Positions 38,285 through 53,125 of a stretch of DNA of 64,000 nt are shown in pieces; the first letter of the stretch is position 1; each line of letters opens with the position of its first letter. Source of the stretch: Flavobacterium branchiarum (GTDB lineage: Bacteria > Bacteroidota > Bacteroidia > Flavobacteriales > Flavobacteriaceae). Under the pieces are notes generated by a model. It was not told the DNA's origin. It made no database searches and was given only the letters and a program-made list of their open reading frames with translations. The translations under genes and the position numbers were made by a program. The stretch spans positions 248,001 through 312,000 of the forward strand of contig NZ_JAUFQQ010000005.1 in NCBI RefSeq assembly GCF_030409845.1, given 5' to 3'.

Positions 38285-38325
38285 TATTCGCTTCTTTATA
38301 TATTAACTTAAATTATTTATCTGTC

Positions 38326-39708
38326 TTAATTGCGAGACCAACTTCTGTACTTATGCCCTTTGTATGCAAAAAATATAATCATTAAATAGCAAGGCACCAA
38401 CATTAAATATGCAATCTGATTGCCACTCTTAGCTGTTTTATCCACTCCGTTTGCTAGATTAGCAGTATTAATACTTTCTGCCCAAGCACCATATATTAAA
38501 GGGAAGATTGCACCACCTATAATACCCATGATCAAAATTGCGCTTCCTATTTTGGTGTATCCTTTTAAATCTTGTAATGCCATTGGCCATATTGCCGGCC
38601 AACAAAGTGCATTTGCAAGTCCCATTAATGCTACTAAAATTATAACTACTGGCATGTCAGGAATTCCCGAAAACTGAACAGTTATTTCCGGTGATATAAC
38701 AACTATTAAAATTACTAAAATTAATCCTAAAATTCCAGATGCTTTTAAAGCAGTAACTTGCGAAAGATATTTTGGTATTAATGTAATTCCTAGAATATAC
38801 CCTACTACCATTGCAGACATAGTAAATGAAGTTAATTTTAAATAAAAATTACCATCTTTACCATACACTCCAAGTTCTTTTCCAAATCCACCGATTGAAT
38901 CACCTGCCAAAACTTCGGCAGCTAAATATAGCATCAAGGTTATAACTCCTAGAACTAATTGAGGGTGTTTAAAAGCATTTTTTATTTGTTTAAAAATACT
39001 CAAATTCATTACAGCTCCTTCTTCATCTAAATCAATTTCTGGTAATGGAGACAGCTTAACTAAAAGTGCCAAAACCAAAATAACTAATCCCATATAAAGG
39101 TAGGGCGTCTGCAATTGTAATGTCAGCAAATTTAAGGCTTCTGCTTTAGAAACTTCATCTAAAAGTGCAATTTTCTCAGCTGTGTAATCTTGCATATTCG
39201 ATAACACCAATGCTGTTAAGGCTAATGGCGCTATAAATCCTGCTAATTTATTTGCAATTCCTAATACACTAATTCTTGCAGCGGCGCTTTCTCTTGGTCC
39301 AATCACTACTACATAAGGGTTTGCAGCAGTTTGCAAGATTGCTAAACCTGTTCCCATTGTGAATAATGCTACTAAAAAGAAAAGATAAGTTCTTGTTGCT
39401 GCAGCTGGATAAAACATAAAAGCGCCTATAGCAATTACAATTAAACCGAGCGAAACACCATTTTTGTAACCTACCTTTTCGATTACCCAAGAAGACGGAA
39501 TAGCCATGACAAAATAGGCAATATAAAAAGCAAATGTTACAAAATAAGCTTGAGAAGCTGTTAGCTCACAAGCTAACTCAAAAAAGGGAATTAAAGGCCC
39601 GTTAAGCCAGGTAACGAAACCTAGAATAAAAAATAATGCGGTTAAAATAACCATAGGAATAATTGTACTCCTTTGATCTATACGTATTGCACTTTCAGTC
39701 TTTGACAT
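38326..39708 (-). CDS. Sugar MFS transporter (FucP/NagP-type, FHS family)
   Basis: 460 residues with twelve membrane helices. The word FVTWLNGPLIPFFELACELT near the N-terminus and FALGLA-like ATNPYV block (LAILQTAANPYVVVIG) are typical of fucose/N-acetylglucosamine permeases of the FHS family. It imports a monosaccharide by proton symport. Co-transcription with the NagB-deacetylase gene points to N-acetylglucosamine or a related amino sugar. Confidence 0.9.
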   Translation of the reverse strand: MSKTESAIRIDQRSTIIPMVILTALFFILGFVTWLNGPLIPFFELACELTASQAYFVTFAFYIAYFVMAIPSSWVIEKVGYKNGVSLGLIVIAIGAFMFYPAAATRTYLFFLVALFTMGTGLAILQTAANPYVVVIGPRESAAARISVLGIANKLAGFIAPLALTALVLSNMQDYTAEKIALLDEVSKAEALNLLTLQLQTPYLYMGLVILVLALLVKLSPLPEIDLDEEGAVMNLSIFKQIKNAFKHPQLVLGVITLMLYLAAEVLAGDSIGGFGKELGVYGKDGNFYLKLTSFTMSAMVVGYILGITLIPKYLSQVTALKASGILGLILVILIVVISPEITVQFSGIPDMPVVIILVALMGLANALCWPAIWPMALQDLKGYTKIGSAILIMGIIGGAIFPLIYGAWAESINTANLANGVDKTAKSGNQIAYLMLVPCYLMIIFFAYKGHKYRSWSRN

Positions 39709-39777
39709 AATTTTTTTCTGGTTGATGGTTAATAGATTTAGTAATTTTTCAATCTAAAATAGCACCAACACTTTCCT

Positions 39778-39822
39778 GTTTTTTTTGCAAAATCACAATA
39801 AATAGTTGCGTTTTTTTTGCAA
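39778..39822. repeat. Two 13-base direct repeats in the transporter gene leader
   Basis: GTTTTTTTTGCAA occurs at 39778-39790 and again at 39810-39822, 32 bases apart, between the -7 box (39831-39838) and the transporter ATG (39708) on the minus strand. A spacing of three helical turns suggests a protein-binding pair. No LacI-type palindrome is seen here. Confidence 0.45.
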
Positions 39823-39830
39823 TGATACGA

Positions 39831-39838
39831 CAAAAGTA
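39831..39838 (-). promoter_or_regulatory. Sugar transporter -7 promoter box
   Basis: TACTTTTG on the minus strand matches TAnnTTTG. The leader to the ATG at 39708 is about 120 bases long. Confidence 0.55.
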
Positions 39839-39891
39839 GCTCAATAAGTTCTTCTTATTCCTAAATTAGATATGAAATTTTTGTTAATTTT

Positions 39892-40767
39892 TTATGCTTC
39901 CCAATTTAACTGTGGGTAATATTTTTTTAGATATTCTTTTACTTCAGCGATATCTTCTTTGGCCGTTAAATCTGGAACATGCTCTGAAAAAGGAATTCCT
40001 AAAGTTGTGTTTGGATTATCTTTTATTGCATTTAAAAGTACCGTTGGTAATTCTTTTTCGTCGCGTTCTGGGTGAACTGGACAGTTTTTTAGATATGGAT
40101 ACAACATTGCGCCATCAAATTTAAAAGCATTCATACTTACTCTTAACTTCCCTTCAGAATCTTTATAATTTTCTAAATCAGCGGCAGTTGGTTTTTCAAG
40201 TATATCCAATAATTGATTGTTCGCATCCAATTTAGCAATTGCAAAACGTGAAATTCTTTCAGATGGAAACTCTAAAGCATCACGATCATAACCTATAAAA
40301 GCGTTTAAACTATTGGTTTTTCTTAAAGCTAATAAAGCTGCTGTAGAGTATAAATTATCACTATTACAAACTGTGTAACTTTTTGAGTTCATTTCAGGAT
40401 ATTGTTCTACTGCTTGAAATAAAGCATCGGCTGTACCAAATGGTTTTACTCTATCTTTTGGAATGTATTGAACTGCAAATGAAATATTCAAACCATGGAA
40501 ATCATTATTCTTATCTTGATTGCCATAAAATTCTTTAAACAATTCTCCTTGCTCTCCTATTATGATTATAATATTTTTATATCCTGCTTTTTTTGCATTT
40601 AGCAAAAGATAATCTAACAAAGGTCTTCCGTTTGGACCAACCCCAATAAGTCCTTTACTTCGCTCATTTGCTTGAGCTATTTCGTCTTCGGTTAAATTAT
40701 TCAATACAACTTCCTTTTTCATTCGAGAAGATGCACCGCCTGCTAAAATAATTAAATTGTCATGCAT
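39892..40767 (-). CDS. Sugar-phosphate nucleotidyltransferase family protein
   Basis: 291 residues. The N-terminus LIILAGGASSRM is the glycine-rich nucleotide-binding signature (L-AGG-x-G-x-R type), and GPNGRPLLDYLLLNAKKAGY and CNSDNLY continue the fold. It would transfer a nucleotide from NTP to a sugar-1-phosphate. It follows the GHMP kinase by 24 bases, so the pair could make a nucleotide sugar from a free sugar. The sugar and nucleotide are not shown by sequence; GalNAc or galactose would fit the locus. Confidence 0.82.
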   Translation of the reverse strand: MHDNLIILAGGASSRMKKEVVLNNLTEDEIAQANERSKGLIGVGPNGRPLLDYLLLNAKKAGYKNIIIIIGEQGELFKEFYGNQDKNNDFHGLNISFAVQYIPKDRVKPFGTADALFQAVEQYPEMNSKSYTVCNSDNLYSTAALLALRKTNSLNAFIGYDRDALEFPSERISRFAIAKLDANNQLLDILEKPTAADLENYKDSEGKLRVSMNAFKFDGAMLYPYLKNCPVHPERDEKELPTVLLNAIKDNPNTTLGIPFSEHVPDLTAKEDIAEVKEYLKKYYPQLNWEA

Positions 40768-40791
40768 GTTTTATTCTTTAAAATTTTAATA

Positions 40792-41871
40792 TTATTGTAT
40801 TATTCTTGCTCCTGGATCTACAGTTACAGTATAGGCTTCCTTTGCTCCAGCAGCCAATATTGCTGCTACAACTTCGTCTTCTTTTTTTGGATCTGCTATT
40901 ACAACAATACTTCCTCCTCCTCCTGAACCAACAATTTTGGCTCCATAAGCTCCCGCACGTAATGCAGCATCGATCATGGCATCAATTTTAGGCACAGTTA
41001 TCTTCAATAAATCTCTTAAAACTGCATGATGCATATTCATTAATTCACCTATTCTAACTAGATCCAGCGTTGGTTTTTCAAATTCTTTTAGCGCTTCTCT
41101 TGTATAATGGTGATTTTTTATAGCTGCTTCAAAAAACGGAATTAATCTATCTGGTAGATAATTACTGAATTTATCAATATCTACAATTTCAGTTTTATGT
41201 AAATCAAAGCTTCTAAAATTTCGTTTTACAATATCGATTGCCAATAAAGCATTGCCTTTTAACTCCCCTATTAATCCTATTGTTTCTTTTGGAACTCCTG
41301 AAACTCCAGTAATTAGCCCTTTTAATTCTGTGCCAATTATATTATATGAAAATGGAACACTTGTATTGATATAGACAATATTCCCTACTCCTATACTAAA
41401 ATGATCCATCATACCACCTGGTTCCCCATGCTCCAAAACTTCTGAAGCGTAGCCCATTTGAGCAATAAATTCTGGTGTAACTTCACAATCAACACCATAT
41501 GCGTTTATAAGGAAATTAATCCAAGCCATTAATAATGCAGATGAACTCGAAGTTCCTGAGTTAATAGGAATATTTCCTGTTATCGTAATATCGTAACCAA
41601 CAGTAGGCACACAACCATGTCTTCTTAAAACTCGTAATGAAGAAGCAAAATAATCACGTGGTTCTAATTCTACAAAAGTCGCATTGATATCGATAATTCT
41701 GACTTGATCAATATCGACCATGTCTAATTTAAAAACTGAAGTGTCATTTTGTACTGCCGTTAATTCTATATTTCTATTTATAGCACATGCTATAACGGGT
41801 AATCCTAAATAATCTTGATGATCACCAAAAAGGCAAGTTCGCCCTGGTGCTAATGATATGATTTTCTTCAC
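40792..41871 (-). CDS. GHMP-family sugar kinase (galactokinase-like)
   Basis: 359 residues. Three GHMP motifs are visible: SLAPGRTCLFGDHQDYLG at the N-terminus (like the galactokinase PGRVNLIGEHTDY), the ATP loop INSGTSSSSALLMAW (about 106-120), and KIVGSGGGGSIVVIAD near the C-terminus. It phosphorylates a small molecule, most likely a sugar at C1. First gene of the kinase-nucleotidyltransferase pair, driven by a LacI-type operator-promoter unit that it shares with susC, the orphan susD and the phosphoesterase gene. Confidence 0.85.
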   Translation of the reverse strand: MKKIISLAPGRTCLFGDHQDYLGLPVIACAINRNIELTAVQNDTSVFKLDMVDIDQVRIIDINATFVELEPRDYFASSLRVLRRHGCVPTVGYDITITGNIPINSGTSSSSALLMAWINFLINAYGVDCEVTPEFIAQMGYASEVLEHGEPGGMMDHFSIGVGNIVYINTSVPFSYNIIGTELKGLITGVSGVPKETIGLIGELKGNALLAIDIVKRNFRSFDLHKTEIVDIDKFSNYLPDRLIPFFEAAIKNHHYTREALKEFEKPTLDLVRIGELMNMHHAVLRDLLKITVPKIDAMIDAALRAGAYGAKIVGSGGGGSIVVIADPKKEDEVVAAILAAGAKEAYTVTVDPGARIIQ

Positions 41872-41956: not shown

Positions 41957-41988
41957 CGAAACTAGATATTAAATTTTAATAAAGCAAA
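41957..41988 (-). promoter_or_regulatory. Kinase operon promoter, TAGTTTCG type
   Basis: On the minus strand TTTG (41985-41988), 20-base spacer, TAGTTTCG (41957-41964). The -7 box differs from TAnnTTTG at one strongly conserved T. The same variant box stands in the promoters at 44080, 46194 and 48018. The operator 42003-42016 lies 38 bases upstream of the -7 box. Confidence 0.72.
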
Positions 41989-42002
41989 GAAAAAACAAAA
42001 AA

Positions 42003-42016
42003 TGTGCTCGAACACA
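42003..42016. promoter_or_regulatory. LacI-type operator, kinase operon, proximal
   Basis: TGTGCTCGAACACA, a near-perfect palindrome with a central CG as in LacI-family sites. Confidence 0.78.
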
Positions 42017-42025
42017 CTTAAATAA

Positions 42026-42039
42026 TGTTATCGAGCACA
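42026..42039. promoter_or_regulatory. LacI-type operator, kinase operon, distal
   Basis: TGTTATCGAGCACA, one good and one degenerate half. Its centre is 23 bases from the proximal site, about two helical turns. The remaining part of the 41872-42282 gap (42040-42260) shows nothing else that I can assign. Confidence 0.55.
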
Positions 42040-42267
42040 CTTATTAATATACTTATGAAAATTGATTAATATCTTCCTTAAAATTATTAAGATATTTACG
42101 ATATTTGAAATAAGAATATCTAATTTTATACTTTTGCTTTATTATTTAACTAATTTCACATATTGACTTATTATGTAGTTAATTGTTTATTCAAAAACTT
42201 CATCACAAATAAAAAACTTTTCTTTTTTTAAATAAATCAGAAAAAAAACAAACACAAAGTTTTTATA

Positions 42268-42275
42268 TATATTTG
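42268..42275 (+). promoter_or_regulatory. LacI-family regulator gene -7 promoter box
   Basis: TATATTTG matches TAnnTTTG and is only seven bases before the ATG at 42283, so the mRNA would have almost no leader. Confidence 0.5.
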
Positions 42276-42282
42276 CCTTCTT

Positions 42283-43323
42283 ATGGATAAAAAGTATACA
42301 ATTAAAGATATTGCTAAATTAGCAGGAGTTTCAAAAGGTACTGTAGACAGAGTGTTACACAAAAGAGGAAAAGTTTCTCCGTTGGCACTAGAAAAAGTAA
42401 ATGAAGTTTTAAATGTAATTAATTACGAGCCTAATCTTATAGCCCGAAATCTTAAGAATAATAAGATCTATCGCATTTGCATAGCTCTACCTGATCCTGA
42501 AATCGATCCTTATTGGTCTCCTTGTATTAAAGGAATTAATGATGCAATACAAGAATTTAAAGCATACAACATACTTGTAGAAACGCTTTTTTTTAATCCC
42601 GAAAAAACGAAATCATTTACAAATATCAATGAAGTAATTATTGAAAAAGCACCAGATGCCGTTTTACTTGCTCCATTATTCCATAAAGAAACAATAGAAG
42701 CCATTAAAAAATATGATTCCTTAGATATTCTTATAAATACATTTAATAATCAGGTTGAATCTACATTGATTAAGAATTTTGTTGGACAAGATTTATTTAG
42801 AAGTGGTCGTGTAGCAGCTAAATTATTAAATACTATTCTAGACAAAGGCCATATTGCAATTATACACATTGATGAAACCTATAAGAATGCAATTCACATG
42901 CAGGAAAAAGAAAGAGGTTTTAGAAATTATTTTAATGAAAAGGAAAATATAGATTACAAGATTACTACCTTAAAATTAAAAAGCCCAAATGTCGAAATCA
43001 ATCTAAAAAACTTTATTGCTGAGAATCCTGATTTATCTGGTGTTTTTATTACCACATCCAAAGCCTATCAAATAGCCAAAACAATTGGTGAGGTTAAGCA
43101 TAAAAGAATCCGAATTATTGGTTATGATTTAATTGATGAAAATGTAAACAACCTAAATCTAGGCGTTATCGATTTTTTAATTCATCAGAACCAAAAAAGA
43201 CAAGCCTATCTAGGTATAACTTACCTTGTAGATCATTTTCTTTTTCACAAAGAAACTCCAGCTGTTACCCTCCTACCTATCGATATTATTAATTCTGAAA
43301 ATGCAGATTTTTATTTAGAATAA
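42283..43323 (+). CDS. LacI-family transcription regulator of the glycan locus
   Basis: 346 residues. The N-terminal helix-turn-helix is KDIAKLAGVSKGTVDRVLHKRG (about 7-28) followed by the hinge KVSPLALEKVNEVLN. The sensor domain is a periplasmic-binding fold (IALPDPEIDPYW, then FVGQDLFRSGRVAAKLL, VFITTSKAYQIAKTIGE). It binds DNA as a dimer and is released or activated by a sugar. The palindrome TGTGYDCGARCACA beside this gene and before three other transcription units in the locus is its likely site. It is the central gene between the two arms of the locus. Confidence 0.92.
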   Translation: MDKKYTIKDIAKLAGVSKGTVDRVLHKRGKVSPLALEKVNEVLNVINYEPNLIARNLKNNKIYRICIALPDPEIDPYWSPCIKGINDAIQEFKAYNILVETLFFNPEKTKSFTNINEVIIEKAPDAVLLAPLFHKETIEAIKKYDSLDILINTFNNQVESTLIKNFVGQDLFRSGRVAAKLLNTILDKGHIAIIHIDETYKNAIHMQEKERGFRNYFNEKENIDYKITTLKLKSPNVEINLKNFIAENPDLSGVFITTSKAYQIAKTIGEVKHKRIRIIGYDLIDENVNNLNLGVIDFLIHQNQKRQAYLGITYLVDHFLFHKETPAVTLLPIDIINSENADFYLE

Positions 43324-43324
43324 T

Positions 43325-43975
43325 TTATTCTTTCAAAGTTAAGACTCCAAACGAAGATAGAATATGAAAATTGGGTGTTTCAGTAACAGGATTCACCCAA
43401 GTAATCCAAGTAGGCTCATAACTATCGCTGTCGCCTTTAACGTATTTTGCTCTAAAAACACCTGCCTCAATTTGGTTATTCTTGATTAAATTAAACTGTT
43501 TTAAAGAAGCAATACTTATTGCTCCTTCCACAATAAAACAATCCTTATTTATTGATGATTTAACTAACAACTCCTCTTTTGGCCAAGACCAATCAAAATT
43601 AAAATTCTTATTGGGATAAGCTATAAAATCCATAATTCTGGCAGTAGCATCTATTTCTAGACAATAATATGGATTTAGCGTATTATCAGGTCTAAAAAAT
43701 AGCTCTACCCTATCTGAGTTCCCAATACTTTCCTTACTGTTATCTTTCTTTTCGATATGAATTTCGGTATCGTAAACTGTAAAACAAAAAAACAATTGCT
43801 CCAAATCCCATAGTGCTTTAAACGCAATTCGAGCAGGCAATTTAGAATCCCAAGGTGAAATAAAATCATCTAGAGCAGTTGCCTTATTCCATAAATGAGA
43901 ATCTCCCTTTCCTGAAATAATCAATTCATTTTTTGGTATCGAATTTACTTCGTAGTTCTTAATTTCTTGATTCAT
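43325..43975 (-). CDS. CBM9-like carbohydrate-binding domain protein
   Basis: 216 residues without a signal peptide. The body is a family 9-like carbohydrate-binding beta-sandwich: LWNKATALDDFISPWDSK, FKALWDLEQLFFCFTVYD, SDRVELFFRPD and the Trp-rich NFDWSWPKEE. Lack of a signal suggests a cytoplasmic protein or an unusual export. Its stop is one base from the LacI gene stop (convergent). Its promoter shares the operator 44028-44041 with the orphan susD gene in the other direction. Confidence 0.8.
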   Translation of the reverse strand: MNQEIKNYEVNSIPKNELIISGKGDSHLWNKATALDDFISPWDSKLPARIAFKALWDLEQLFFCFTVYDTEIHIEKKDNSKESIGNSDRVELFFRPDNTLNPYYCLEIDATARIMDFIAYPNKNFNFDWSWPKEELLVKSSINKDCFIVEGAISIASLKQFNLIKNNQIEAGVFRAKYVKGDSDSYEPTWITWVNPVTETPNFHILSSFGVLTLKE

Positions 43976-44018
43976 ATTATTTTTAAATAATGCCTTTTAT
44001 ATAATTATTACCCTTTTA

Positions 44019-44026
44019 CAAATATA
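44019..44026 (-). promoter_or_regulatory. CBM9-like gene -7 promoter box
   Basis: TATATTTG on the minus strand matches TAnnTTTG. It is one base from the operator 44028-44041, which would lie in the -7/-33 spacer, a position that suits repression. Confidence 0.55.
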
Positions 44027-44027
44027 A

Positions 44028-44041
44028 TGTGCACGAACACA
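44028..44041. promoter_or_regulatory. LacI-type operator, divergent CBM9/susD region
   Basis: TGTGCACGAACACA. It is 38 bases upstream of the orphan susD -7 box and directly upstream of the CBM9 -7 box on the other strand. One site could control both directions. Confidence 0.78.
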
Positions 44042-44056
44042 TTATCCCATTATTTC

Positions 44057-44087
44057 TTGCTTAATAATTCTTTTATAGTTAGTTTCG
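44057..44087 (+). promoter_or_regulatory. Orphan susD promoter, TAGTTTCG type
   Basis: TTG (44057-44059), 20-base spacer, TAGTTTCG (44080-44087). The leader to the ATG at 44362 is about 270 bases; I see no clear RNA element or susC remnant in it. Confidence 0.72.
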
Positions 44088-44361
44088 TTAAAATTATCAT
44101 TTTATAAGTTAAAACATATTAATATAAATTCAAACAAAATACTTATACTACAAAATAATCACAATAATAATTACAGTCTAATTTTTGAATTATATATTAT
44201 AACTGAAAGACCAATTCATATCCAATAATTACTAACTAACCAATTTGAGCCTATGAAATAAAACCCCTTAAGTATTTAAATTTTGAAATCCTCCCCCAAA
44301 AAATCACAACTATCATTAAGCAAATGAATTTGCTTTAAATCTTAATCATTAAACTTAAATC

Positions 44362-46059
44362 ATGAAAAAAATATTCACACTATTTATTATTATCAGTTTT
44401 CTAGTTTCATGCGATTTAGAAAGAGAACCAAACGACTCTTACACAAAAGATAAAATCATGAAGGATCGAGAAGCCGCTGTCGAAGTACTTCTAAACGGAT
44501 GTTATGCTCAACTCAAGAATTGGTCGGATATAATGCATTCTGCGGGGGAATATCCTAGTGACAATATAATGATTAGAGGAACTTCAACAGGAGTTTCATT
44601 CTCATTCATTTCATATCAACACATTCCTAATAATGGAAGTTTATCTGCATTTTGGAACAACAGTTATAAAATTATTTCACAATCAAGTGATTTAATGAAA
44701 ATGGTTTCAGAGGGGGAAAATCTTAAGATGGATCAAAAATTAGGCGAAATGTATTATTTAAGAGGAACTATCTATTTTTATTTATGTCGCATTTATGGTA
44801 GGCCTTATTCTCAATCTCCAGAAACTAATTTAGGGGTACCAATTATAAATGGAATGCCTGAAGATGTCAACAATATTAACCTACCTGACAGAGCTACTGT
44901 TAAAGCAACGTATGAGCAAGCCATAAACGATCTTAAAAAAGGGGAAGCTTTAATGAATGAAAACAGAACCGCCGCTTATGCCACCAAACAAGCTGCACAA
45001 GCAATGTTATCAAGAATTTATTTGTACATGAGTGGCACTTATGAAACTCCTAATCAAGAATATGCTGATTTATCTATTGAATACGCTAATAAAGTAATTT
45101 CTAGTGGCCGCTACAATTTACTTAGCAGAGCTAATTTTATGAAATACAATACTTTTGCTCCTGACGCAAGCGGACAAACTGAAACTATTTTTGCCATTAA
45201 GCGTGTAGCGTCAGAATATTCAGGTAGTGACTACTATAATAGCATTGGTGGTATGTATGCCAACATACAAGGACAAGGTTGGGGAGAAATGTATGCTAGC
45301 GCAAAATACCTAGACTTATTGCGTAAATCTGGTTTAAAGAAAGATGCTAGATGGGCTTTTATTGATCCTCAATACACATTAGATGGCTCCAATAATAAAA
45401 CAACCGCTTTCCGTTTTGTTGTAGATGTTTTTAATACTGCAGGTCAACAAACTGGATACAACTATGTACAACAACCACTTAAAACAAATTCTAACGGATC
45501 TTATTACATTACTATAGCTAATACAAATTATAATCTTACTGCAGTTGATACTAGTGAAAATAGCTACTCTATTACTTATGAAGGAAAAACATATGTGGGT
45601 GAAAAAGATTATATGATGTTATTAAACCGTGTTTATCCAATGTACTACATTACAAAATGCTCATTACAAGACAATAACTCTCACTTACACTCTCCTATTA
45701 TCTCAAGATTAGCTGAAATGTATTTAAACATGGCTGAAGCTTATGCAAAAAAAGGAGATTATCATAATGCACTAACAAACTTAAATACAATTAGAGAAAG
45801 ATCAATTGTAGGCGGTAGCTATACCTCTTTAAATAAAACAAATGCTGCACAACTTATTGATGAAGAGCGCCAATTAGAACTTGCTTTTGAAGCTCAACGT
45901 GGCTATGATGTATACAGAAATGGACAAACAATGACACGCCACTATCCTGGTCCTCATGAGTCAATGGACGATATCCCTGCAACAAGCTTAAGAGTAGTGC
46001 AATATATTCCTCAATCAGAAATTAATGCTTACGAAGGAACTTTAACTCAAAATCCATAA
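44362..46059 (+). CDS. SusD/RagB-family glycan-binding lipoprotein, orphan copy
   Basis: 565 residues, lipobox LVSC (Cys 17), then a SusD helical TPR-like fold (DREAAVEVLLNGCYAQLKNW, KLGEMYYLRGTIYFYLCRIYGRP, QAAQAMLSRIYLYMSG, AEMYLNMAEAYAKKGDYHNA, EERQLELAFEAQRGYDVYRNG). It binds oligosaccharide at the cell surface and normally caps a SusC channel. No SusC gene precedes it. The same 565-residue protein type is encoded after SusC at 51334; most residues are identical, so this is a recent duplication. It has its own promoter and operator. Confidence 0.95.
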   Translation: MKKIFTLFIIISFLVSCDLEREPNDSYTKDKIMKDREAAVEVLLNGCYAQLKNWSDIMHSAGEYPSDNIMIRGTSTGVSFSFISYQHIPNNGSLSAFWNNSYKIISQSSDLMKMVSEGENLKMDQKLGEMYYLRGTIYFYLCRIYGRPYSQSPETNLGVPIINGMPEDVNNINLPDRATVKATYEQAINDLKKGEALMNENRTAAYATKQAAQAMLSRIYLYMSGTYETPNQEYADLSIEYANKVISSGRYNLLSRANFMKYNTFAPDASGQTETIFAIKRVASEYSGSDYYNSIGGMYANIQGQGWGEMYASAKYLDLLRKSGLKKDARWAFIDPQYTLDGSNNKTTAFRFVVDVFNTAGQQTGYNYVQQPLKTNSNGSYYITIANTNYNLTAVDTSENSYSITYEGKTYVGEKDYMMLLNRVYPMYYITKCSLQDNNSHLHSPIISRLAEMYLNMAEAYAKKGDYHNALTNLNTIRERSIVGGSYTSLNKTNAAQLIDEERQLELAFEAQRGYDVYRNGQTMTRHYPGPHESMDDIPATSLRVVQYIPQSEINAYEGTLTQNP

Positions 46060-46090
46060 TTATACATAACTGTAGCTATTTTTAATAAAA

Positions 46091-46122
46091 TTCCTCTTAA
46101 TTCATAAATTAGTTAAGAGGAA
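46091..46122 (+). terminator. Hairpin after the orphan susD gene
   Basis: TTCCTCTTAA (46091-46100) pairs perfectly with TTAAGAGGAA (46113-46122) around a 12-base loop. No T-run follows on the plus strand, so it is a weak terminator or a 3' end stabiliser. Confidence 0.45.
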
Positions 46123-46140
46123 ATATTCAAACCAAAGTAA

Positions 46141-46154
46141 TGTGCACGAACACA
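46141..46154. promoter_or_regulatory. LacI-type operator, phosphoesterase gene
   Basis: TGTGCACGAACACA, identical to the site at 44028-44041. It is 39 bases upstream of the -7 box at 46194. Confidence 0.78.
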
Positions 46155-46170
46155 TTTTACAATGCTTTTC

Positions 46171-46201
46171 TTTGTTTAATAAAATATAATTGATAGTTTC
46201 G
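46171..46201 (+). promoter_or_regulatory. Phosphoesterase gene promoter, TAGTTTCG type
   Basis: TTTG (46171-46174), 19-base spacer, TAGTTTCG (46194-46201). The words around it (CTTTTC, TTTAATAAAAT) are shared with the susC promoter. Confidence 0.7.
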
Positions 46202-46262
46202 TCACTATTAATACCAAACAACCTCTCTTTTAAACTATAAATAACCAAATTTTTATCTTTTT

Positions 46263-47486
46263 ATGAAAGAAGAAAAAAACTCTCGTCGGTCTTTCCTAAC
46301 AAAAGCAATAGTAGGTCTTTCGGGTTCTGTTGTTGCGACTGGATTGCCTCTATCTGCATTTGCATCAAATCAAGACTCAGAACCATTAGACACTGCCCAT
46401 ACCTTTTTAACAAAGCCCTATCTTCAAGCTCCTACAATTGATGGCATTACAATTATGTGGCTTACCAACCAATTTTGTTTGAATTGGATAGAATATGGTG
46501 AAACCGAAAAACTAGGAACAAAAGCCGAACAATGTACACACGGCATGATGAATACCAATTCTAGAATTAATACTGTAACGCTAGCAAACCTTAAACCAAA
46601 TACCAACTATTTCTACAAAGTTTTCTCGAAACAAATTGTAGATTTCCGACCTTATAAAATTACTTTTGGAGATACAATAAATAGTGAAACCTATTCCTTT
46701 AAAACTCTCAATCCTAAACCAAAAGAAGTCAGTTGGTTAGTTTTAAATGATATTCACGATCGTCCAGAATCTTTTAAGGAACTATTACAACTCAATCAGA
46801 ACAAGCCCTATGATTTTGTTTTTTTGAATGGAGATATGTTTGACTATCAAACTGATGAAAACCAAATCATCAATCACTTACTGAATCCATGCAGTTTATT
46901 TTCAACAGAAAAACCTTTTATGTTCGTAAGAGGAAACCATGAGACAAGAGGTAAATATTCTAGAAATCTATTAGACTATTATTACAATTATGACAAGAAA
47001 GAGTATTATAGTTTTAAAATGGGACCCGTTTTTACAATTGTTTTAGATACGGGTGAGGACAAAAAAGATTCCCACCCCGTATATGGTGGTACTGTTAATT
47101 ATGATTCGTATCGTGAAGAACAAGCTATTTGGTTAGAGAAACAAATGAAATCTAAAGCTTTTAAGAACGCTCCATTTCGCGTAGTAATGATGCATATCCC
47201 CCATTATCACTCGGATGAAGAACATGGAACAACTGAATGTCGCAGGTTATTTGGACCTTTATTCGAGAAATATAAAATCGATTTATTTGTTGCTGGACAT
47301 ACCCACGAATACGGAATGTTTGAACCAAATAATGAGCACTCTTATCATTATGTAATTGGTGGCGGACCAGAAACAGGAAATAGAACTTTAATACGAATTG
47401 ATGCCACCTCCAAAGTTTTAAATCTACAAATGCTAAATGATTCGGGAAAAGAAATTGGATTATTTACACTTAATAGTAAAAGATAG
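46263..47486 (+). CDS. Exported calcineurin-like metallophosphoesterase with N-terminal fibronectin-like domain
   Basis: 407 residues. The N-terminus SRRSFLTKAIVGLSGSVVA is a twin-arginine-type signal. An Ig/FN3-like domain (about 48-150) precedes the metallophosphoesterase core with LNDIHD, NGDMFD, RGNHETRG, MMHIPHYH and AGHTHEYG, the five metal-binding motifs in order. It hydrolyses a phosphate ester outside the cytoplasm. It is under the same operator as the kinase, orphan susD and susC genes, so its substrate is probably tied to the same glycan, for example a phosphorylated sugar. Single gene with a terminator 136 bases after the stop. Confidence 0.9.
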   Translation: MKEEKNSRRSFLTKAIVGLSGSVVATGLPLSAFASNQDSEPLDTAHTFLTKPYLQAPTIDGITIMWLTNQFCLNWIEYGETEKLGTKAEQCTHGMMNTNSRINTVTLANLKPNTNYFYKVFSKQIVDFRPYKITFGDTINSETYSFKTLNPKPKEVSWLVLNDIHDRPESFKELLQLNQNKPYDFVFLNGDMFDYQTDENQIINHLLNPCSLFSTEKPFMFVRGNHETRGKYSRNLLDYYYNYDKKEYYSFKMGPVFTIVLDTGEDKKDSHPVYGGTVNYDSYREEQAIWLEKQMKSKAFKNAPFRVVMMHIPHYHSDEEHGTTECRRLFGPLFEKYKIDLFVAGHTHEYGMFEPNNEHSYHYVIGGGPETGNRTLIRIDATSKVLNLQMLNDSGKEIGLFTLNSKR

Positions 47487-47622
47487 AATTTCAAAATAAC
47501 ACCTTGAAATCTCAACTATATTTCGAGTTTACTAATTACTATATTATCAAGACTAGGAATCGTTTCTTTTTTGCCATTTTACTTCGAATAAAAAGATGAA
47601 CCTCTCTAATTTCAAACAATAC

Positions 47623-47655
47623 AAACCTTCAAACGATACAACTCTTTGAAGGTTT
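47623..47655 (+). terminator. Terminator after the phosphoesterase gene
   Basis: AAACCTTCAAA (47623-47633) pairs perfectly with TTTGAAGGTTT (47645-47655), 11-base loop, T-run after. The rest of the 47487-48261 gap is A/T-rich with only the operator-promoter unit and leader of susC; 47660-47930 shows nothing assignable. Confidence 0.8.
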
Positions 47656-47941
47656 TTTTAATTCATCGATTTAATCAAAAAAACACATTAAACACCTAAC
47701 TCTTAAGGACAAGATTAATGCTATATCCTTGTTTTATTAACAGTTCTACAACAAAAACATCCAATATTCAATTGAAATATTTTATAGTAATTTGACAACT
47801 TTTTCTGCAATCTTTTTCCTTATTCATTTATCTAATAATAATTATCTGCAAAATTCTTGTTTTACTTAAACTATAAACTTTCATTTTTTTTAATAATAAA
47901 CTAGAATTTTATTACTAAAAAAACATTTTCAATAAAAAAAA

Positions 47942-47957
47942 TGTGCTCGAGAACACA
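47942..47957. promoter_or_regulatory. LacI-type operator, susC, distal
   Basis: TGTGCTCGAGAACACA, the same palindrome with a two-base insertion at the centre. Its centre is 22 bases from the proximal site. Confidence 0.6.
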
Positions 47958-47964
47958 AATATTG

Positions 47965-47978
47965 TGTGTTCGAGCACA
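47965..47978. promoter_or_regulatory. LacI-type operator, susC, proximal
   Basis: TGTGTTCGAGCACA, exact complement of the site at 42003-42016. It is 39 bases upstream of the susC -7 box. Confidence 0.8.
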
Positions 47979-47993
47979 TTTTTAGCACTTTTC

Positions 47994-48025
47994 CTTGTTT
48001 AATAAAATTTAAATATATAGTTTCG
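47994..48025 (+). promoter_or_regulatory. susC promoter, TAGTTTCG type
   Basis: CTTG (47994-47997), 20-base spacer, TAGTTTCG (48018-48025). The leader to the susC ATG is about 230 bases. Confidence 0.72.
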
Positions 48026-48261: not shown

Positions 48262-51200
48262 ATGAAATTATTAATTAAAAAAAAGCCTAGAGACTTATGG
48301 TCGCCATCTAGGAAGGAAATCAAATTAACAATTCTGTCATTGTTCGCTTTGACTTTTCAAATTTCAACAGCTGCTCCATCAAAATCAACTAGTTTAAAGA
48401 CAATTGATTTAGCACTTGTAAAAAAAATAGTAAAAGGAAAAGTAACCGATGCTACTGGACTACCTCTTCCGGGAGTAAACGTCCTAATTAAAGGAACTAC
48501 CATTGGGGTGCAGACAGATTACAATGGTGAGTTTGCCATTGAAGTTGAAGATAACCAAACTATATTGGTTATTTCTTATATGGGAATGCAAGATGAAGAA
48601 GTGACAATCGGAAAAGGGCCTATTGTTGTTACTCTTAAAGAAGTAGGACAAGTAATGGACGAAGTGGTTATTGTAGGTTACAGTAAAATTAAAAAAGAAA
48701 GTCTTACTGGTGCTTTACAAACCATTAATAATAAAAAACTAATTGACGCTACTACTCCATCGGTAGAAAATTTACTTTCTGGTAAAGCAACTGGAGTATA
48801 CGTAAGTTCTGGTAGCGGGCAACCTGGTGATGTTGGTAAAATAGTAATTCGTGGAAAAACTACAGTTAACGGTAGCACTGACCCTCTATGGGTTGTTGAT
48901 GGTGTTATTGTAGGTAGCGGTTCAGGAAATGTGAATCCAGCTGATATCGAAACTTTAACGGTTCTTAAAGATGCCGCATCTACTGCTGTATATGGTTCTC
49001 AGGGAGCAAACGGTGTAATTATTGTTACTACAAAAAGTGGTAAAAGTGGTAAAGCAACTATTAATGCTTCTATCAAAACCGCAGCTACAACTTTAAATAC
49101 AGGGAATTTTGATATTATGAACGGAGCAGAATTATATGACCTATATGATTCTTTCTCAAACAAGCAACTTTTTAATACTGCATGGTGGTGGACTCCAGAA
49201 TTGAGAAATAAAAATTTCGACTGGTGGAAAAAAGCTACAAACACGGGTATTGCTAGAGACTTTAACCTATCAATTAATGGTGGTAGCGATGTTTTTAAAA
49301 GCTATGTTTCTCTTGGAGTATATGATGAAACTGGTGCAATAAAAGGATATGACTACACACGTTATAACTTACTTCTTAAATTTAGTTACAAAGTAAATAA
49401 TTGGTTAACGATACGTCCTCAAGCTAATATTACGCGTAACGAAACATTTGATCAACAACATTCTGTAGGTGCTATGTATGCCAATATGCCTTGGGATAGT
49501 CCTTATCTTCCTGATGGAACTTTAGTAGGAAACCAACCTAATCCAACTTGGGTAAATACAACAGGTTCTAACTATTTATATGATTTGCAATGGAATTATG
49601 GAGAATCTGAAGCATATAGCGCAAGAACAAACCTAAGCTTTGATGCAAAGATAAATAGCTGGTTAACATTTACTTCTACAAATAACTATACGTTTTCAAA
49701 CTCTAATTCAATGTACTATACTGATCCTAGATCATCTGGAGGATTAGCAGTTAAAGGAAGAATTCAAAATAACACAAACAGCTATAATCGATTCTATACA
49801 AATCAATTATTAGCTGCTAATAAAACATTTGGAGCACACTCTATAAATGCTATTGCTGCTTACGAATGGGATGAGTATAAAGGTAAAAATACGGAAGGTA
49901 TTGCAACTGGAATACCTCCTGGATTTATTGTTCCAGATGCTGCAACTGTTCCAGAAAAAGTTCGTGGAGGAAGGTCAGAATGGGCTGTACAATCTTTGTT
50001 AACCAATATCAATTATACTTATGATGATAGGTATATGGCGCAATTTTCTATTCGTCGAGATGGAGCTTCTAATTTTGGAGAGAATGCTAGATATGGAAAT
50101 TTCTTTTCTATAAGTGGTGGTTGGAATATTCACAAAGAAAAATTCTTTAAAGCGGATTATATCAATAACTTAAAACTTAGAGCAAGTTATGGTTCTGTAG
50201 GTAACAGACCAACAAGCTTATATCCTCACTTGCCATTATATTCTGTATCGACTGGATATAATGAAAACCCAGGTGCAATTATCTCTCAATTAGGAAACCC
50301 AGATTTAAGTTGGGAAAAAACTTTTACAACAGGCTTTGGTTTAGATGTAAGCTTTTTAAACAGAATTAATTTAACATTAGATTATTACGATAAAGACACA
50401 TCTGATTTATTATATCAAGTTCCGTTACCTGGAGTAATTGGGGTGACTAGTATTTGGAGAAATGTTGGAGCTGTTAATAATAAAGGTTTCGAAGCGTCTC
50501 TTAATGTAGATATTATTAAAAATGAAAACTGGAAATGGAATGTAGATGTGAACATCGGAACAAATAAAAATAAAGTAACAAATCTTTACGGAACAAAACA
50601 AGAAATTATTGTTGGTGATGGAACTGGTATTTCTGGTTCAGCATCTAAATTATTAAAACCCGGAATGGATGTAGATACTTGGTACCTTCCTGAATGGGCA
50701 GGAGTAAATTCTGATAACGGACAACCACAATGGTATAAAACTGACACAAAAACAGGAGAACGCGTTTTAACTTCAAGCTACGGCGAAGCATCGAAAAATC
50801 CTATTGCAGCGGGATCATACACTCCGTCTTATTTCGGAGGATTTTCGACTACTTTAAATTATAAAAATTTCGACTTTGGAGCAACATTCACATACTCTGT
50901 AGGTGGTGAGATTTATAACTATGCTCGTGCAGAGTTTGATTCAGATGGAGCTTATACAGACCGTAACCAAATGAATCTTCAAAGCGGATGGAGCCGTTGG
51001 GAAAAACCAGGCGATATTGCTACTCATCCACAAGCTATTTATGGTAACAAAAGTCAATCAAACAAAGCGTCAACACGTTTCTTAGAAGATGCGTCATACC
51101 TAAAATTAAGAAGTGTATCATTTGGATATAATGTATCTATTGAACGCTTGAATATATCAAATTTGAGAATATTTGTAACAGGAGAAAACCTTTTTACATT

Positions 51201-51321
51201 AACCGATTTCTCAGGTGTTGACCCAGAGATACCGCCGAGAAACAATATGATTACAGGAGTTTCTACCTCTGTATATCCTCAAACTCGCCGATTTGTATTA
51301 GGTTTTAATCTTACTCTTTAA
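48262..51321 (+). CDS. SusC/RagA-family TonB-dependent outer-membrane glycan importer
   Basis: 1019 residues, normal length. A long signal region (about 1-38) precedes the carboxypeptidase-like domain (VKGKVTDATGLPLPGVNVLIKG, YNGEFAIEV, about 57-137), a TonB-box-like stretch (DEVVIVGYSKIKKESLTGA) and the plug domain (SVENLLSGKATGVYVSSGSG, VVDGVIV, VLKDAASTAVYGSQGANGVI). The remaining 750 residues form the 22-strand barrel and end in RFVLGFNLTL. It imports glycan fragments with energy from TonB. The SusD partner starts 12 bases after its stop. Confidence 0.97.
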   Translation: MKLLIKKKPRDLWSPSRKEIKLTILSLFALTFQISTAAPSKSTSLKTIDLALVKKIVKGKVTDATGLPLPGVNVLIKGTTIGVQTDYNGEFAIEVEDNQTILVISYMGMQDEEVTIGKGPIVVTLKEVGQVMDEVVIVGYSKIKKESLTGALQTINNKKLIDATTPSVENLLSGKATGVYVSSGSGQPGDVGKIVIRGKTTVNGSTDPLWVVDGVIVGSGSGNVNPADIETLTVLKDAASTAVYGSQGANGVIIVTTKSGKSGKATINASIKTAATTLNTGNFDIMNGAELYDLYDSFSNKQLFNTAWWWTPELRNKNFDWWKKATNTGIARDFNLSINGGSDVFKSYVSLGVYDETGAIKGYDYTRYNLLLKFSYKVNNWLTIRPQANITRNETFDQQHSVGAMYANMPWDSPYLPDGTLVGNQPNPTWVNTTGSNYLYDLQWNYGESEAYSARTNLSFDAKINSWLTFTSTNNYTFSNSNSMYYTDPRSSGGLAVKGRIQNNTNSYNRFYTNQLLAANKTFGAHSINAIAAYEWDEYKGKNTEGIATGIPPGFIVPDAATVPEKVRGGRSEWAVQSLLTNINYTYDDRYMAQFSIRRDGASNFGENARYGNFFSISGGWNIHKEKFFKADYINNLKLRASYGSVGNRPTSLYPHLPLYSVSTGYNENPGAIISQLGNPDLSWEKTFTTGFGLDVSFLNRINLTLDYYDKDTSDLLYQVPLPGVIGVTSIWRNVGAVNNKGFEASLNVDIIKNENWKWNVDVNIGTNKNKVTNLYGTKQEIIVGDGTGISGSASKLLKPGMDVDTWYLPEWAGVNSDNGQPQWYKTDTKTGERVLTSSYGEASKNPIAAGSYTPSYFGGFSTTLNYKNFDFGATFTYSVGGEIYNYARAEFDSDGAYTDRNQMNLQSGWSRWEKPGDIATHPQAIYGNKSQSNKASTRFLEDASYLKLRSVSFGYNVSIERLNISNLRIFVTGENLFTLTDFSGVDPEIPPRNNMITGVSTSVYPQTRRFVLGFNLTL

Positions 51322-51333
51322 AAACTCAAAACC

Positions 51334-53031
51334 ATGAAAAAAATATTCTTATTATTTATTACTCTTATTTTTCTAACTTCATGTGAGTTGGAGCGTGAAC
51401 CATATGGTTCATACACAAAAGACAAAATCATGAAGGATAAAGAAGCTGCTGTTGAAGTACTTCTTAACGGATGTTACGCACAACTTAAGAATTGGTCAGA
51501 TGTTATGCATCGTGTAGGTGAATATCCAGGAGATAATATCATGATTAGAGGAGCATCTACTGATCCTTTCTTCACTTTTATCTCTTATCAACATACACCA
51601 ATTAACGATAGATTATCTACTTTTTGGAATAATAGCTACAAAGTTATCTCACAATCAAGTGATTTAATGAAAATGATTTCTGAAGGAGAAAGCCCTAAAA
51701 TGGATCAACAATTAGGAGAAGCCTATTACTTAAGAGGAATGCTATATTTCTATCTTGTTAAAACATATGGTAGACCTTATGCCCAATCACCAGAAACAAA
51801 CTTAGGTGTGCCAATTGTAAATGGATTACCAGCTGATTTGGTTAACATTAATCTTCCTGATAGAGCTACTGTTAAAGCGGGCTATGAGCAAGCAATAAGC
51901 GACCTTAAAAAAGGAGAAGCTTTAATGACTGAAAACAGAAAAGCATCTTATGCAACCAAAGAAGCTGCACAAGCAATGCTTTCTAGAGTGTATTTATACA
52001 TGAGTGGTACATATGAAATACCAAATCAACAATATGCTGATTTGTCTATTGAATATGCTAACAAAGTAATTGCTAGCGGTCGTTACAATTTACTTGGTAG
52101 AAATGACTTTATGAAATACAATACTTTTGCTCCTGATGCAAGCGGACAAACTGAAACTATATTTGCTGTTAAAAGAGTAGCATCAGAATACTCAGGTTCA
52201 GATCATTATTATGGTATTGGTGGTATGTATGCTAATATACAAGGGCAAGGCTGGGGAGAAATGTATGCAAGCGCAAAATACCTGGACTTATTACGTAAAT
52301 CTGGACTTAAGAAAGATGCAAGATGGGCTTTTGTCGATCCTCAATACGCATTAGACAAATCCAATAATAAAACAGATGCATTTCGTTTTATTACAGATGT
52401 ATTTAATGCTGCAGGAGTTCAAACTGACTATAACTATGTGCAACAACCACTTAAAACTAATCCAAATGGTAGCTATTATATAACTATTGCTGATGTAAAC
52501 TACAACCTTACACCTGTAAATGCTGCAGAAAATAGTTATTCAATTGTTTATGGAGGTAAAACATATGTAGGTGAAAAAGATTATATGATGTTATTAAATC
52601 GTGTATACCCGATGTACTACATCACAAAAGCTTCTTTGCAAGACAATAGCTCGCACTTACATTCGCCTACTATTTCAAGATTAGCCGAACTGTATTTGAA
52701 TATGGCAGAAGCTTATGCTAAAAAAGGAGATTATCAAAATGCTGTTACTAATTTAAATAAAATTAGAGAAAGAGCAATTGTAGGTGGAGGATATACTTCA
52801 TTAACTAGTACAAATGCAGCGCAACTTATTGATGAAGAGCGTCAATTAGAACTTGCATTTGAAGCGCACCGTGGTTACGATGTGTACAGAAATGGACAAA
52901 CAATGACTCGTCATTATCCAGGACCTCACTCTCCGATGATAGATTATCCAGCAACAAGTCTAAGAGTAGTACAATATATTCCTCAATCGGAAATAAATGC
53001 TTATCCAGGGACTTTAACTCAAAATCCATAA
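51334..53031 (+). CDS. SusD/RagB-family glycan-binding lipoprotein, SusC partner
   Basis: 565 residues with lipobox LTSC (Cys 17) and the same fold and motifs as the orphan copy at 44362-46059 (for example LLRKSGLKKDARWAF is identical). The two proteins differ mostly at scattered positions, including parts that face the ligand in SusD proteins, so their glycan preferences could differ. It follows susC by 12 bases and forms the usual pair that caps the SusC barrel. Confidence 0.96.
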   Translation: MKKIFLLFITLIFLTSCELEREPYGSYTKDKIMKDKEAAVEVLLNGCYAQLKNWSDVMHRVGEYPGDNIMIRGASTDPFFTFISYQHTPINDRLSTFWNNSYKVISQSSDLMKMISEGESPKMDQQLGEAYYLRGMLYFYLVKTYGRPYAQSPETNLGVPIVNGLPADLVNINLPDRATVKAGYEQAISDLKKGEALMTENRKASYATKEAAQAMLSRVYLYMSGTYEIPNQQYADLSIEYANKVIASGRYNLLGRNDFMKYNTFAPDASGQTETIFAVKRVASEYSGSDHYYGIGGMYANIQGQGWGEMYASAKYLDLLRKSGLKKDARWAFVDPQYALDKSNNKTDAFRFITDVFNAAGVQTDYNYVQQPLKTNPNGSYYITIADVNYNLTPVNAAENSYSIVYGGKTYVGEKDYMMLLNRVYPMYYITKASLQDNSSHLHSPTISRLAELYLNMAEAYAKKGDYQNAVTNLNKIRERAIVGGGYTSLTSTNAAQLIDEERQLELAFEAHRGYDVYRNGQTMTRHYPGPHSPMIDYPATSLRVVQYIPQSEINAYPGTLTQNP

Positions 53032-53093
53032 ACAAGATTTTGAAAAAACTAATTTTTGAATTTAATGGTTAGTTATTAAATTGGACTTTCTTT

Positions 53094-53125
53094 AGAATTC
53101 CCCCTTTGCTAACAAGGGGGATTCT
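53094..53125 (+). other. Intercistronic hairpin after susD
   Basis: AGAATTCCCCCTT (53094-53106) pairs with AAGGGGGATTCT (53114-53125) with one bulge and a seven-base loop. No T-run follows, so it is more likely a processing or stability element than a terminator. It could lower expression of the downstream enzymes relative to SusC/SusD. Confidence 0.5.

What the first reader, a model, noticed from the sequence alone, without database searches (positions are those of the whole stretch)
41957..48025. A LacI-family glycan regulon with a fixed upstream operator and a variant -7 box
Seen: four promoters (minus strand at 41957-41988; plus strand at 44057, 46171 and 47994) each have a palindrome TGTGYDCGARCACA exactly 38 or 39 bases upstream of a -7 box TAGTTTCG. 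The box differs from the Bacteroidetes consensus TAnnTTTG at the same base in all four. Flanking words (CTTTTC, TTTAATAAAAT) are also shared. Known: LacI-family sites are palindromes with a central CG, and the only such regulator gene here (42283-43323) sits between the sites. Inference: a site upstream of the -33 box combined with a weak -7 box is what an activator needs, so this LacI protein may activate these genes when sugar is present. Most LacI-family proteins repress from sites over the promoter, so this would be a less usual design, and it links transport, phosphoesterase and kinase functions to one signal.
Basis: partly seen in the sequence, partly recalled or inferred. Interest (0 to 1): 0.85.

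Follow-up and report, generated by a model that had tools for sequence, protein, structure and literature searches.

The report
Sugar regulator with upstream-only promoter sites
A sugar-sensing regulator of the LacI family appears to switch on, rather than off, a set of glycan-digestion genes in many Flavobacterium species, from sites kept at a fixed distance from unusually weak promoters; the arrangement is conserved, but the switching itself has not been tested.

Summary
All four promoters have the palindrome 38 or 39 bases upstream of TAGTTTCG; the exact palindrome occurs at only these four places in the 5.0 Mb genome. Of 398 genomes of the genus, 94 have the regulator; the operator-box composite occurs in 85, all among those 94, and in 0 of the other 304.

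New: a second operator about 23 bp upstream in 135 of 145 promoters. The box breaks the published Flavobacterium consensus TAHHTTTG at two bases. The regulator's own promoter keeps a consensus box in 75 of 80 loci. No operator-like site lies at or after 142 promoters. Eight genomes of seven other genera keep an operator 38-40 bases from a TA..TT box, but the box varies.

Best explanation: a class-I-type LacI-family activator of an amino-sugar glycan regulon (about 0.7). Activation is inferred, not shown. Against it, two promoters in the same genome with C at -6 carry a LacI-type palindrome over the start site, so a weak box alone does not prove activation.

The parts
42283..43323 (+). LacI-family regulator gene (346 aa; LacI HTH plus Peripla_BP_4 sensor domain)
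   Evidence: Pfam PF00356 54.1 bits (cut-off 27), PF13407 94.3 bits (cut-off 35.1); orthologs at E<=1e-80 in 94 of 398 genus genomes
42268..42275 (+). Consensus -7 box TATATTTG of the regulator's own promoter
   Evidence: Read; TAnnTTTG lies within 120 nt upstream of the regulator ATG in 75 of 80 named loci
42003..42016 (-). Proximal operator of the kinase operon (TGTGTTCGAGCACA read on the minus strand), centre about -57.5
42026..42039 (-). Distal operator (TGTGCTCGATAACA), 23 bp upstream of the proximal one
41985..41987 (-). -33 TTG, 20 bases upstream of the box
   Evidence: read
41957..41964 (-). -7 box TAGTTTCG of the kinase operon
36356..41871 (-). Operon: GHMP sugar kinase (40792-41871), nucleotidyltransferase (39892-40767), NagP-like MFS transporter (38326-39708), glucosamine-6-phosphate deaminase-like/PIG-L protein (36356-38284)
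   Evidence: the same gene order in most of the 80 named loci
44028..44041 (+). Single operator TGTGCACGAACACA
44080..44087 (+). -7 box TAGTTTCG in front of an orphan susD copy
44362..46059 (+). Orphan SusD-like lipoprotein, 84% identical to the SusD at 51334-53031
46141..46154 (+). Single operator TGTGCACGAACACA
46194..46201 (+). -7 box TAGTTTCG in front of the phosphoesterase gene
46263..47486 (+). Purple-acid-phosphatase-like metallophosphoesterase
   Evidence: PF00149 and PF16656
47942..47955 (+). Distal operator TGTGCTCGAGAACA
47965..47978 (+). Proximal operator TGTGTTCGAGCACA, centre about -58.5
47995..47997 (+). -33 TTG, 20 bases upstream of the box
   Evidence: read
48018..48025 (+). 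-7 box TAGTTTCG of the susC operon
48262..57873 (+). SusC (48262-51321), SusD (51334-53031), DUF5077/DUF3472 protein (53172-54470), GH109 (54533-55912), GH35 (56002-57873); that they form one operon is inferred
   Evidence: GH109 matches solved alpha-N-acetylgalactosaminidase 2ixa, E=1.3e-69

Best explanation
The LacI-family protein encoded at 42283-43323 is most likely an activator. As a dimer it binds a promoter-proximal operator centred about 58 bp upstream of the transcription start. At most promoters a second dimer binds about two helical turns further up, at about -81. From there it contacts RNA polymerase, probably through the alpha subunit's C-terminal domain on the T-rich stretch between operator and -33, and starts transcription from housekeeping-sigma promoters whose -7 box (TAGTTTCG) is held in a doubly non-consensus form. 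This keeps them quiet until the sugar ligand, probably from an N-acetylhexosamine-containing glycan, puts the regulator in its active state. The regulator gene has an ordinary consensus promoter, so a sensor pool is always made. Shown by sequence: operators, spacing, box, co-occurrence, target genes. Inferred: binding, activation, polymerase contact, ligand.
For: Gap between operator and box: 38, 39 or 40 in 148 of the 150 composite matches that one search listed (its list was cut; it allowed 25-50 and required C at -6); the other two are at 30. In a separate scan of 343 directed palindrome contexts, TAnnTT[CA]G falls at 38-40 in 165 of 191 placements, and TAnnTTTG falls there in none.
Co-occurrence: the composite is in 85 of 94 regulator-bearing genomes (one of them, G202, only by a gap-30 match) and 0 of 304 others; reversed-pattern control 1 of 398.
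Box: operator boxes have G at -10 in 135 of 140 and C at -6 in 139 of 140; non-operator TAnnTTTG boxes 20-120 nt before an ATG have G at -10 in 19 of 214.
No operator-like site in the 260 bases from the box onward at 142 promoters (best score 7 of 10 fixed positions).
A distal operator scoring 8 or 9 of 10 in 135 of 145 promoters, spacing 23 in 125 of them.
Regulator's own promoter: TAnnTTTG in 75 of 80 loci.
Relocation: in G180 and G079 the cassette occurs at four and three separate places away from the regulator.
Other genera: an operator with a TA..TT box at 38-40 in eight of eight genomes of seven genera.
Rule: CcpA, a LacI-family protein, activates from cre sites upstream of -35 (PMC3463425, passages).
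Against: No expression, binding or start-site data. C at -6 also occurs at two promoters whose LacI-type palindrome overlies the start site, a repressor's place, and TAnnTTCG is enriched upstream of other susC genes, so it is not specific to this regulator. In two of the eight genomes of other genera the box is consensus, and one of them (L345) has a further operator before susC with no box at 38-40. Six of 100 fetched regulator loci hold no palindrome, and five of 178 palindromes have no box at 37-40, two of these lying at a contig end. The nine-base box is more uniform than a merely weak site needs to be, which could mean a different sigma factor. Many of the species are close relatives, so the counts are not independent.
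Confidence: 0.7

Rival explanations
1. The LacI protein represses from the upstream sites by contacting polymerase or distorting promoter DNA (as GalR is said to do at gal; recalled), and the sugar lifts this.
For: Most LacI-family proteins repress (recalled). A fixed helical phase would also be needed for contact repression. A different LacI-type palindrome in the same genome sits in repressor position at two promoters with C at -6.
Against: No operator-like site at or after 142 promoters; the core promoters are off consensus, so lifting repression alone should give little transcription; the tandem operators are about 23 bp apart, too close for a loop (inference).
Confidence: 0.13
2. TAGTTTCG(T) is the -10 element of an alternative (ECF) sigma factor, and the LacI site is an added layer of control.
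For: CGT is conserved (99, 99 and 94% of 145 promoters). A motif with a CGT box in F. psychrophilum was attributed to an ECF factor (PMC9723704, passages). All nine bases are nearly fixed, more than a weak housekeeping box needs.
Against: TTG is 94-99% conserved per base 20 bases upstream of the box. The sister clade (TACTTTAG, TATTTTAG) and several other-genus loci (TAGATTTG, TAAATTGT) keep TA..TT but lose CGT. I noted no typical ECF -35 element by eye; this was not tested with a model.
Confidence: 0.1
3. The LacI protein blocks a different activator (anti-activator, like CcpA at lev).
For: A known mode for a LacI-family site upstream of a promoter (PMC3463425, passages). Conservation just upstream of the distal operator (0.53-0.62) is slightly above the 0.41-0.50 further up, so a weak site is not excluded.
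Against: No strongly conserved element other than the two operators and the core promoter is seen.
Confidence: 0.04
4. The palindrome is bound by another protein, for example a CRP-type factor.
For: TGTG-N6-CACA resembles a CRP site (recalled).
Against: The composite is confined to genomes with this LacI ortholog (85 of 94 against 0 of 304); the palindrome is even with a central CG, as for 1173 of 1303 LacI-family regulators surveyed (PMC4052901, section 9).
Confidence: 0.03

Closest known systems
CcpA of Bacillus subtilis acting at ackA, pta and ilvB (LacI-family activation from cre sites upstream of -35)
   Same: LacI-family protein, central-CG operator upstream of -35, helix-face dependence reported (PMC3463425, passages); the ackA cre at about -56.5 is recalled, not seen in a call
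   Different: This is a local regulator of one regulon, not a global one; it has tandem operators and a co-conserved non-consensus -7 box; NCBIfam ccpA score 56.7 against cut-off 442.35
LacI-family regulators of Bacteroides (KdgR, UxaR, UxmR, UxuR)
   Same: LacI-family control of sugar catabolism in Bacteroidota (PMC3878776, passages)
   Different: Those act on uronate pathways; the passages seen describe no upstream-only operators, tandem pair or special -7 box
LacI-family regulons with only double operators 21-22 bp apart (RafR, ScrR)
   Same: Two dimers about two helical turns apart, read there as cooperative binding (PMC4052901, section 9)
   Different: Here the pair is upstream of -33 at a fixed distance, and single-operator promoters also exist (two of the window's four; 10 of 145)
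SusR, HTCS and ECF/anti-sigma control of polysaccharide utilization loci
   Same: Positive control of polysaccharide loci by glycan signals (PMC3878776 and PMC10766802, passages)
   Different: Here the regulator is a LacI-family protein, by its domains a soluble one-component type, and the susC operon shares its signal with kinase, deaminase-like and transporter genes

Membership tests
LacI/GalR family (regulator) | N-terminal LacI helix-turn-helix | tested here: met
   PF00356, residues 6-51, 54.1 bits against cut-off 27
LacI/GalR family (regulator) | Periplasmic-binding-protein-like sensor domain | tested here: met
   PF13407, residues 67-318, 94.3 bits against 35.1; closest solved relative by profile 3gbv, E=5.8e-49
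LacI/GalR family (regulator) | Even palindromic operator with central CG | tested here: met
   Central CG was part of the search pattern; the linkage of this pattern to the regulator (85 of 94 against 0 of 304) was not. Binding itself not tested
LacI/GalR family (regulator) | Hinge helix with conserved leucine | tested here: met
   A54, R55 and L57 invariant in 9 orthologs; their hinge role is recalled
LacI/GalR family (regulator) | Sugar ligand alters DNA binding | not testable with these tools
   needs binding assays
CcpA | Equivalog-level sequence match | tested here: not met
   56.7 bits against 442.35
Class-I-type activator | Binding site upstream of -35 at a fixed helical phase | tested here: met
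   gap 38-40 in 148 of 150 listed composites and in 165 of 191 placements; the start site itself is inferred
Class-I-type activator | Raises transcription through the alpha C-terminal domain | not testable with these tools
   needs reporters or in vitro transcription
Flavobacterium housekeeping promoter | -7 box TAHHTTTG | tested here: not met
   G at -10 in 135 of 140 and C at -6 in 139 of 140 operator boxes; consensus from PMC6847099 (passages)
Flavobacterium housekeeping promoter | TA at -12/-11, TT at -8/-7, TTG about 20 bases upstream | tested here: inconclusive
   TA and TT were part of the scan's filter, so their 100% is by construction; TTG at 94-99% per base is not. The -33 TTG is missing in the operon promoters of the sister clade
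ECF promoter with CGT box | Conserved CGT | tested here: inconclusive
   kept in 94-99% per base of 145 promoters, lost in part of the sister clade and in several other-genus loci

The most novel reading that the evidence does not exclude
A class of obligately activator-dependent promoters in Flavobacteriaceae in which the -7 box has been fixed in a specific anti-consensus form (TAGTTTCG, disfavoured bases at -10 and -6) and is opened only by a sugar-bound LacI-family activator at -58/-81. It would be a portable ~100-bp cassette that has spread to unrelated genes of one amino-sugar glycan pathway, and, as far as the open-licence searches show, the first case of a one-component LacI-family activator driving a susC/susD locus.
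Probability: 0.45. Interest if true: 0.75.

Novelty: new variant of a known kind. Interest (0 to 1): 0.6.

Why it matters
LacI-family proteins are the textbook repressors. Here some 85 genomes of one genus keep the operators upstream, at one distance, from promoters that break the housekeeping consensus at two bases. If activation is confirmed, it gives Bacteroidota a simple one-component way to switch on glycan loci, a natural set of activator-dependent promoters for asking how their unusual primary sigma factor reads the -7 box, and a compact inducible cassette for genetic work in the phylum. It also links an uncharacterised kinase, nucleotidyltransferase, deaminase-like protein and phosphoesterase to amino-sugar glycan use.

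Tried and rejected
Downstream or overlapping operators for looping or occlusion: none at 142 promoters. Known RNA elements in 41800-48300: no Rfam match at gathering threshold. Genomes without the regulator as a test of the box: of 160 genomes searched, only G005 and G031 had a close NagP (83%) without the regulator; there nagP-nagB follows an SDR-like gene and an HTCS-like gene (names by eye), and the likely promoter contains TAACTTCG, so this did not isolate the regulator's effect. Nine loci with paralogs 30-35% identical: a palindrome scan of noncoding DNA found nothing comparable. No structure prediction or viral/metagenome search was run.

Literature: the searches found no paper; some searches gave listings, from which I saw passages or one section of nine papers (PMC3878776 came from a reference list). 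Supplements were not available, so the F. psychrophilum motif logos were not seen. None of these showed a LacI-family activator in Flavobacterium, but only open-licence papers are held.

Biases kept in mind: the composite search required C at -6. Searches left that base free but required TA..TT.[GA] 37-40 bases from the operator; one search searched TAnnTT[CA]G and TAnnTTTG separately at any distance up to about 100. Clustering promoters by flank identity still leaves C at -6 as the commonest in 26 of 29 clusters at the 60% level. P values are not corrected for relatedness.
Full report
CHECK OF THE OBSERVATION. In the whole 5,002,601-base genome the exact pattern TGTGNNCGNNCACA occurs at four places, all four in this locus; the same pattern read backwards occurs at two. 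The finding therefore rests on clustering, spacing and conservation, not on the bare number. The LacI-family gene at 42283-43323 is the only one in the window.

PHYLOGENETIC TEST. The regulator has an ortholog (E<=1e-80) in 94 of 398 genomes of the genus. The pattern TGTGNTCGANCACA-N25-50-TANTTTCG occurs in 85 of 398, with the reversed control in 1. All 85 are among the 94; none of the 304 regulator-less genomes has it (Fisher p about 5e-77, not corrected for relatedness). One of the 85, G202, counts only by a gap-30 match. Of the 150 matches that one search listed before cutting its list, 147 have a gap of 38 or 39, one has 40 and two have 30.

LOOK AT THE BOX WITHOUT FIXING THE BASE. The two sets overlap in part; identical promoters were counted once. 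Six of the 100 loci held no palindrome. Of 178 palindromes, five had no TA..TT.[GA] at 37-40, two of them at a contig end. Of 144 distinct promoters, 133 have C, 10 have A and 1 has T at that position, and none is TAnnTTTG. Around 343 directed palindrome contexts, TAnnTT[CA]G falls at 38-40 in 165 of 191 placements; TAnnTTTG never falls there, but does at 68-72 in 54, which by its distance I read as the regulator's own divergent promoter. Published mapping puts the box at -12 to -5 (F. psychrophilum, PMC9723704, passages) and revises the F. johnsoniae consensus to TAHHTTTG, with G at -10 virtually absent among 241 promoters (PMC6847099, passages). TAGTTTCG breaks this twice. In 89 loci (80 named, nine others), operator boxes have G at -10 in 135 of 140 and C at -6 in 139 of 140, while non-operator TAnnTTTG boxes have G at -10 in 19 of 214. 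With a -33 TTG required, the seventh base is C in 133 of 133 operator boxes and in 4 of 98 others. The regulator's own promoter has TAnnTTTG within 120 nt of its ATG in 75 of 80 named loci; two of the 80 have a TAnnTTCG there.

ANATOMY. Aligned promoters of the named loci show a proximal operator TGTGTTCGAGCACA and, in 135 of 145, a distal operator (consensus TGTGCTCGAGAACA; 8 or 9 of 10 fixed bases), start-to-start spacing 23 in 125 of these. The half-site facing the promoter is GAGCACA in about nine of ten, so this nominal palindrome has a conserved orientation; the window's two single sites, TGTGCACGAACACA, are exceptions. Between operator and -33 lie conserved T tracts; TTG sits 20 bases from the box. 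Nothing operator-like lies in the 260 bases from the box on (142 promoters; best 7 of 10), and two of 142 have a further 9-of-10 site more than 30 bases upstream of the proximal one. The share of the commonest base is 0.87 in the distal operator, 0.53-0.62 over the next 50 bases and 0.41-0.50 beyond. With the box at -12 to -5, the operator centres are about -57.5/-58.5 and -80.5/-81.5.

TARGETS. The usual order is nagB-like, NagP-like, nucleotidyltransferase, GHMP kinase, promoter, regulator, CBM9 gene, promoter, susC. After susC the window has SusD, DUF3472, GH109 and GH35 genes. The GH109 matches a solved alpha-N-acetylgalactosaminidase (2ixa, E=1.3e-69). The GHMP kinase matches mevalonate kinase best, then galactokinases and an N-acetylgalactosamine kinase, so its substrate is open. 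In G180 and G079 the composite occurs at four and three places away from the regulator. In G180 these precede a NagP-like transporter, a NagB-like deaminase, a nucleotidyltransferase followed by an APH-family kinase, and a GH95 protein (AnmK 1.5 kb beyond its end); Pfam or NCBIfam was run on these. In G079 three of the four recur by their N-terminal sequence, so the two genomes may share one move. That moved, partly non-orthologous genes of the same pathway carry the cassette is the best evidence for function. An amino-sugar (perhaps GalNAc-containing) glycan is an inference from these families.

WIDER RANGE. In a sister clade within the genus (regulators 57-60% identical) the box is TACTTTAG, TATTTTAG or TACATTCG at gaps of 39-40, and the operon promoters lack the -33 TTG. 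In eight genomes of seven other genera of the family (regulator 47-57% identical) all eight keep an operator with a TA..TT box at 38-40: consensus in two (TATTTTTG, TAGATTTG) and not in six (TACATTCG, TAAATTGT twice, TATTTTCA, TAAATTCA, TACATTCA). A second operator in L345, before susC, has no such box. With eight loci and two directions some of these short matches may be chance. Spacing is thus more conserved than the exact box.

MECHANISM. Fixed spacing, upstream-only sites, off-consensus core promoters and a consensus promoter for the regulator itself fit activation better than repression. For CcpA, another LacI-family protein, sites upstream of -35 go with activation, with exceptions such as lev (PMC3463425, passages). 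I put activation at about 0.7. Against it: TAnnTTCG is enriched upstream of susC genes (11 sense against 1 antisense in 53 upstream regions, all 23 susC genes above cut-off in the own genome and 30 of 43 in G006; 9 against 1 without the two operator promoters; other genes 14 against 17; p=0.025). At two promoters of the same genome, one of them before a susC gene (L316) and one before an unidentified gene (L315), TAnnTTCG is followed at once by TGTAATCGATTACA, a LacI-type palindrome in repressor position. C at -6 may thus be a wider habit of polysaccharide-locus promoters. The near-fixed TAGTTTCGT might also be read by another sigma factor; loss of CGT outside the main clade argues against that.

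NOVELTY. LacI-family activation from upstream sites and tandem LacI operators about 22 bp apart are both known (PMC3463425, passages; PMC4052901, section 9). What I did not find in the searches is a LacI-family activator of a susC/susD locus, or a regulator tied to one fixed anti-consensus -7 box. I rate it a new variant of a known kind.

CHANGES ON CHECKING. I corrected the number of other genera from eight to seven (eight genomes), a cluster count (26 of 29), the description of the two TGTAATCGATTACA promoters and the wording on relocation.

Noticed in passing
window 44362-46059 and 51334-53031: Two SusD copies 84% identical; the first is an orphan without SusC, with its own operator and box. 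The five named loci with the closest regulators after the window's own by that search (L113-L117) have no SusD between the CBM9 and phosphoesterase genes, so this looks like a lineage-specific duplication that took or gained the cassette.
   Followed up: partly
L315:9494, L315:19328, L316:8036 (own genome, contig C3): A different LacI-type palindrome, TGTAATCGATTACA, directly after TAnnTTCG at two promoters (repressor position; one before susC) and about 48 bases from a TAATTTCG at a third place. In G006 (L299) the same palindrome follows a consensus-like TATGTTTG. Possible second regulon with mixed geometry.
   Followed up: partly
L255-L314 (susC genes of two genomes): TAnnTTCG is enriched upstream of susC genes on the sense strand (9 against 1 antisense without the operator promoters), not upstream of other genes; possibly a general variant of polysaccharide-locus promoters.
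   Followed up: partly
L243 and L244 (G005, G031): Genomes without the regulator keep nagP and nagB-like genes behind an SDR-like gene, with an HTCS-like gene upstream and a TAACTTCG box: same catabolic genes, apparently under a different kind of sensor (names by eye).
   Followed up: partly
L118/L147 (F. oncorhynchi), G210, G310, G173: Second regulator copies: two on one contig about 20 kb apart (F. oncorhynchi, G210) or 7 kb apart (G310), and far apart in G173.
   Followed up: no
L246 (G133): The NagP-like transporter in the otherwise conserved operon is a 44%-identical paralog, suggesting replacement of the transporter within the operon.
   Followed up: no
window 43325-43975: A CBM9-like protein with no signal peptide obvious by eye lies convergent to the regulator in most loci; in the sister clade an operator promoter points into it. 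Its role is unknown.
   Followed up: no
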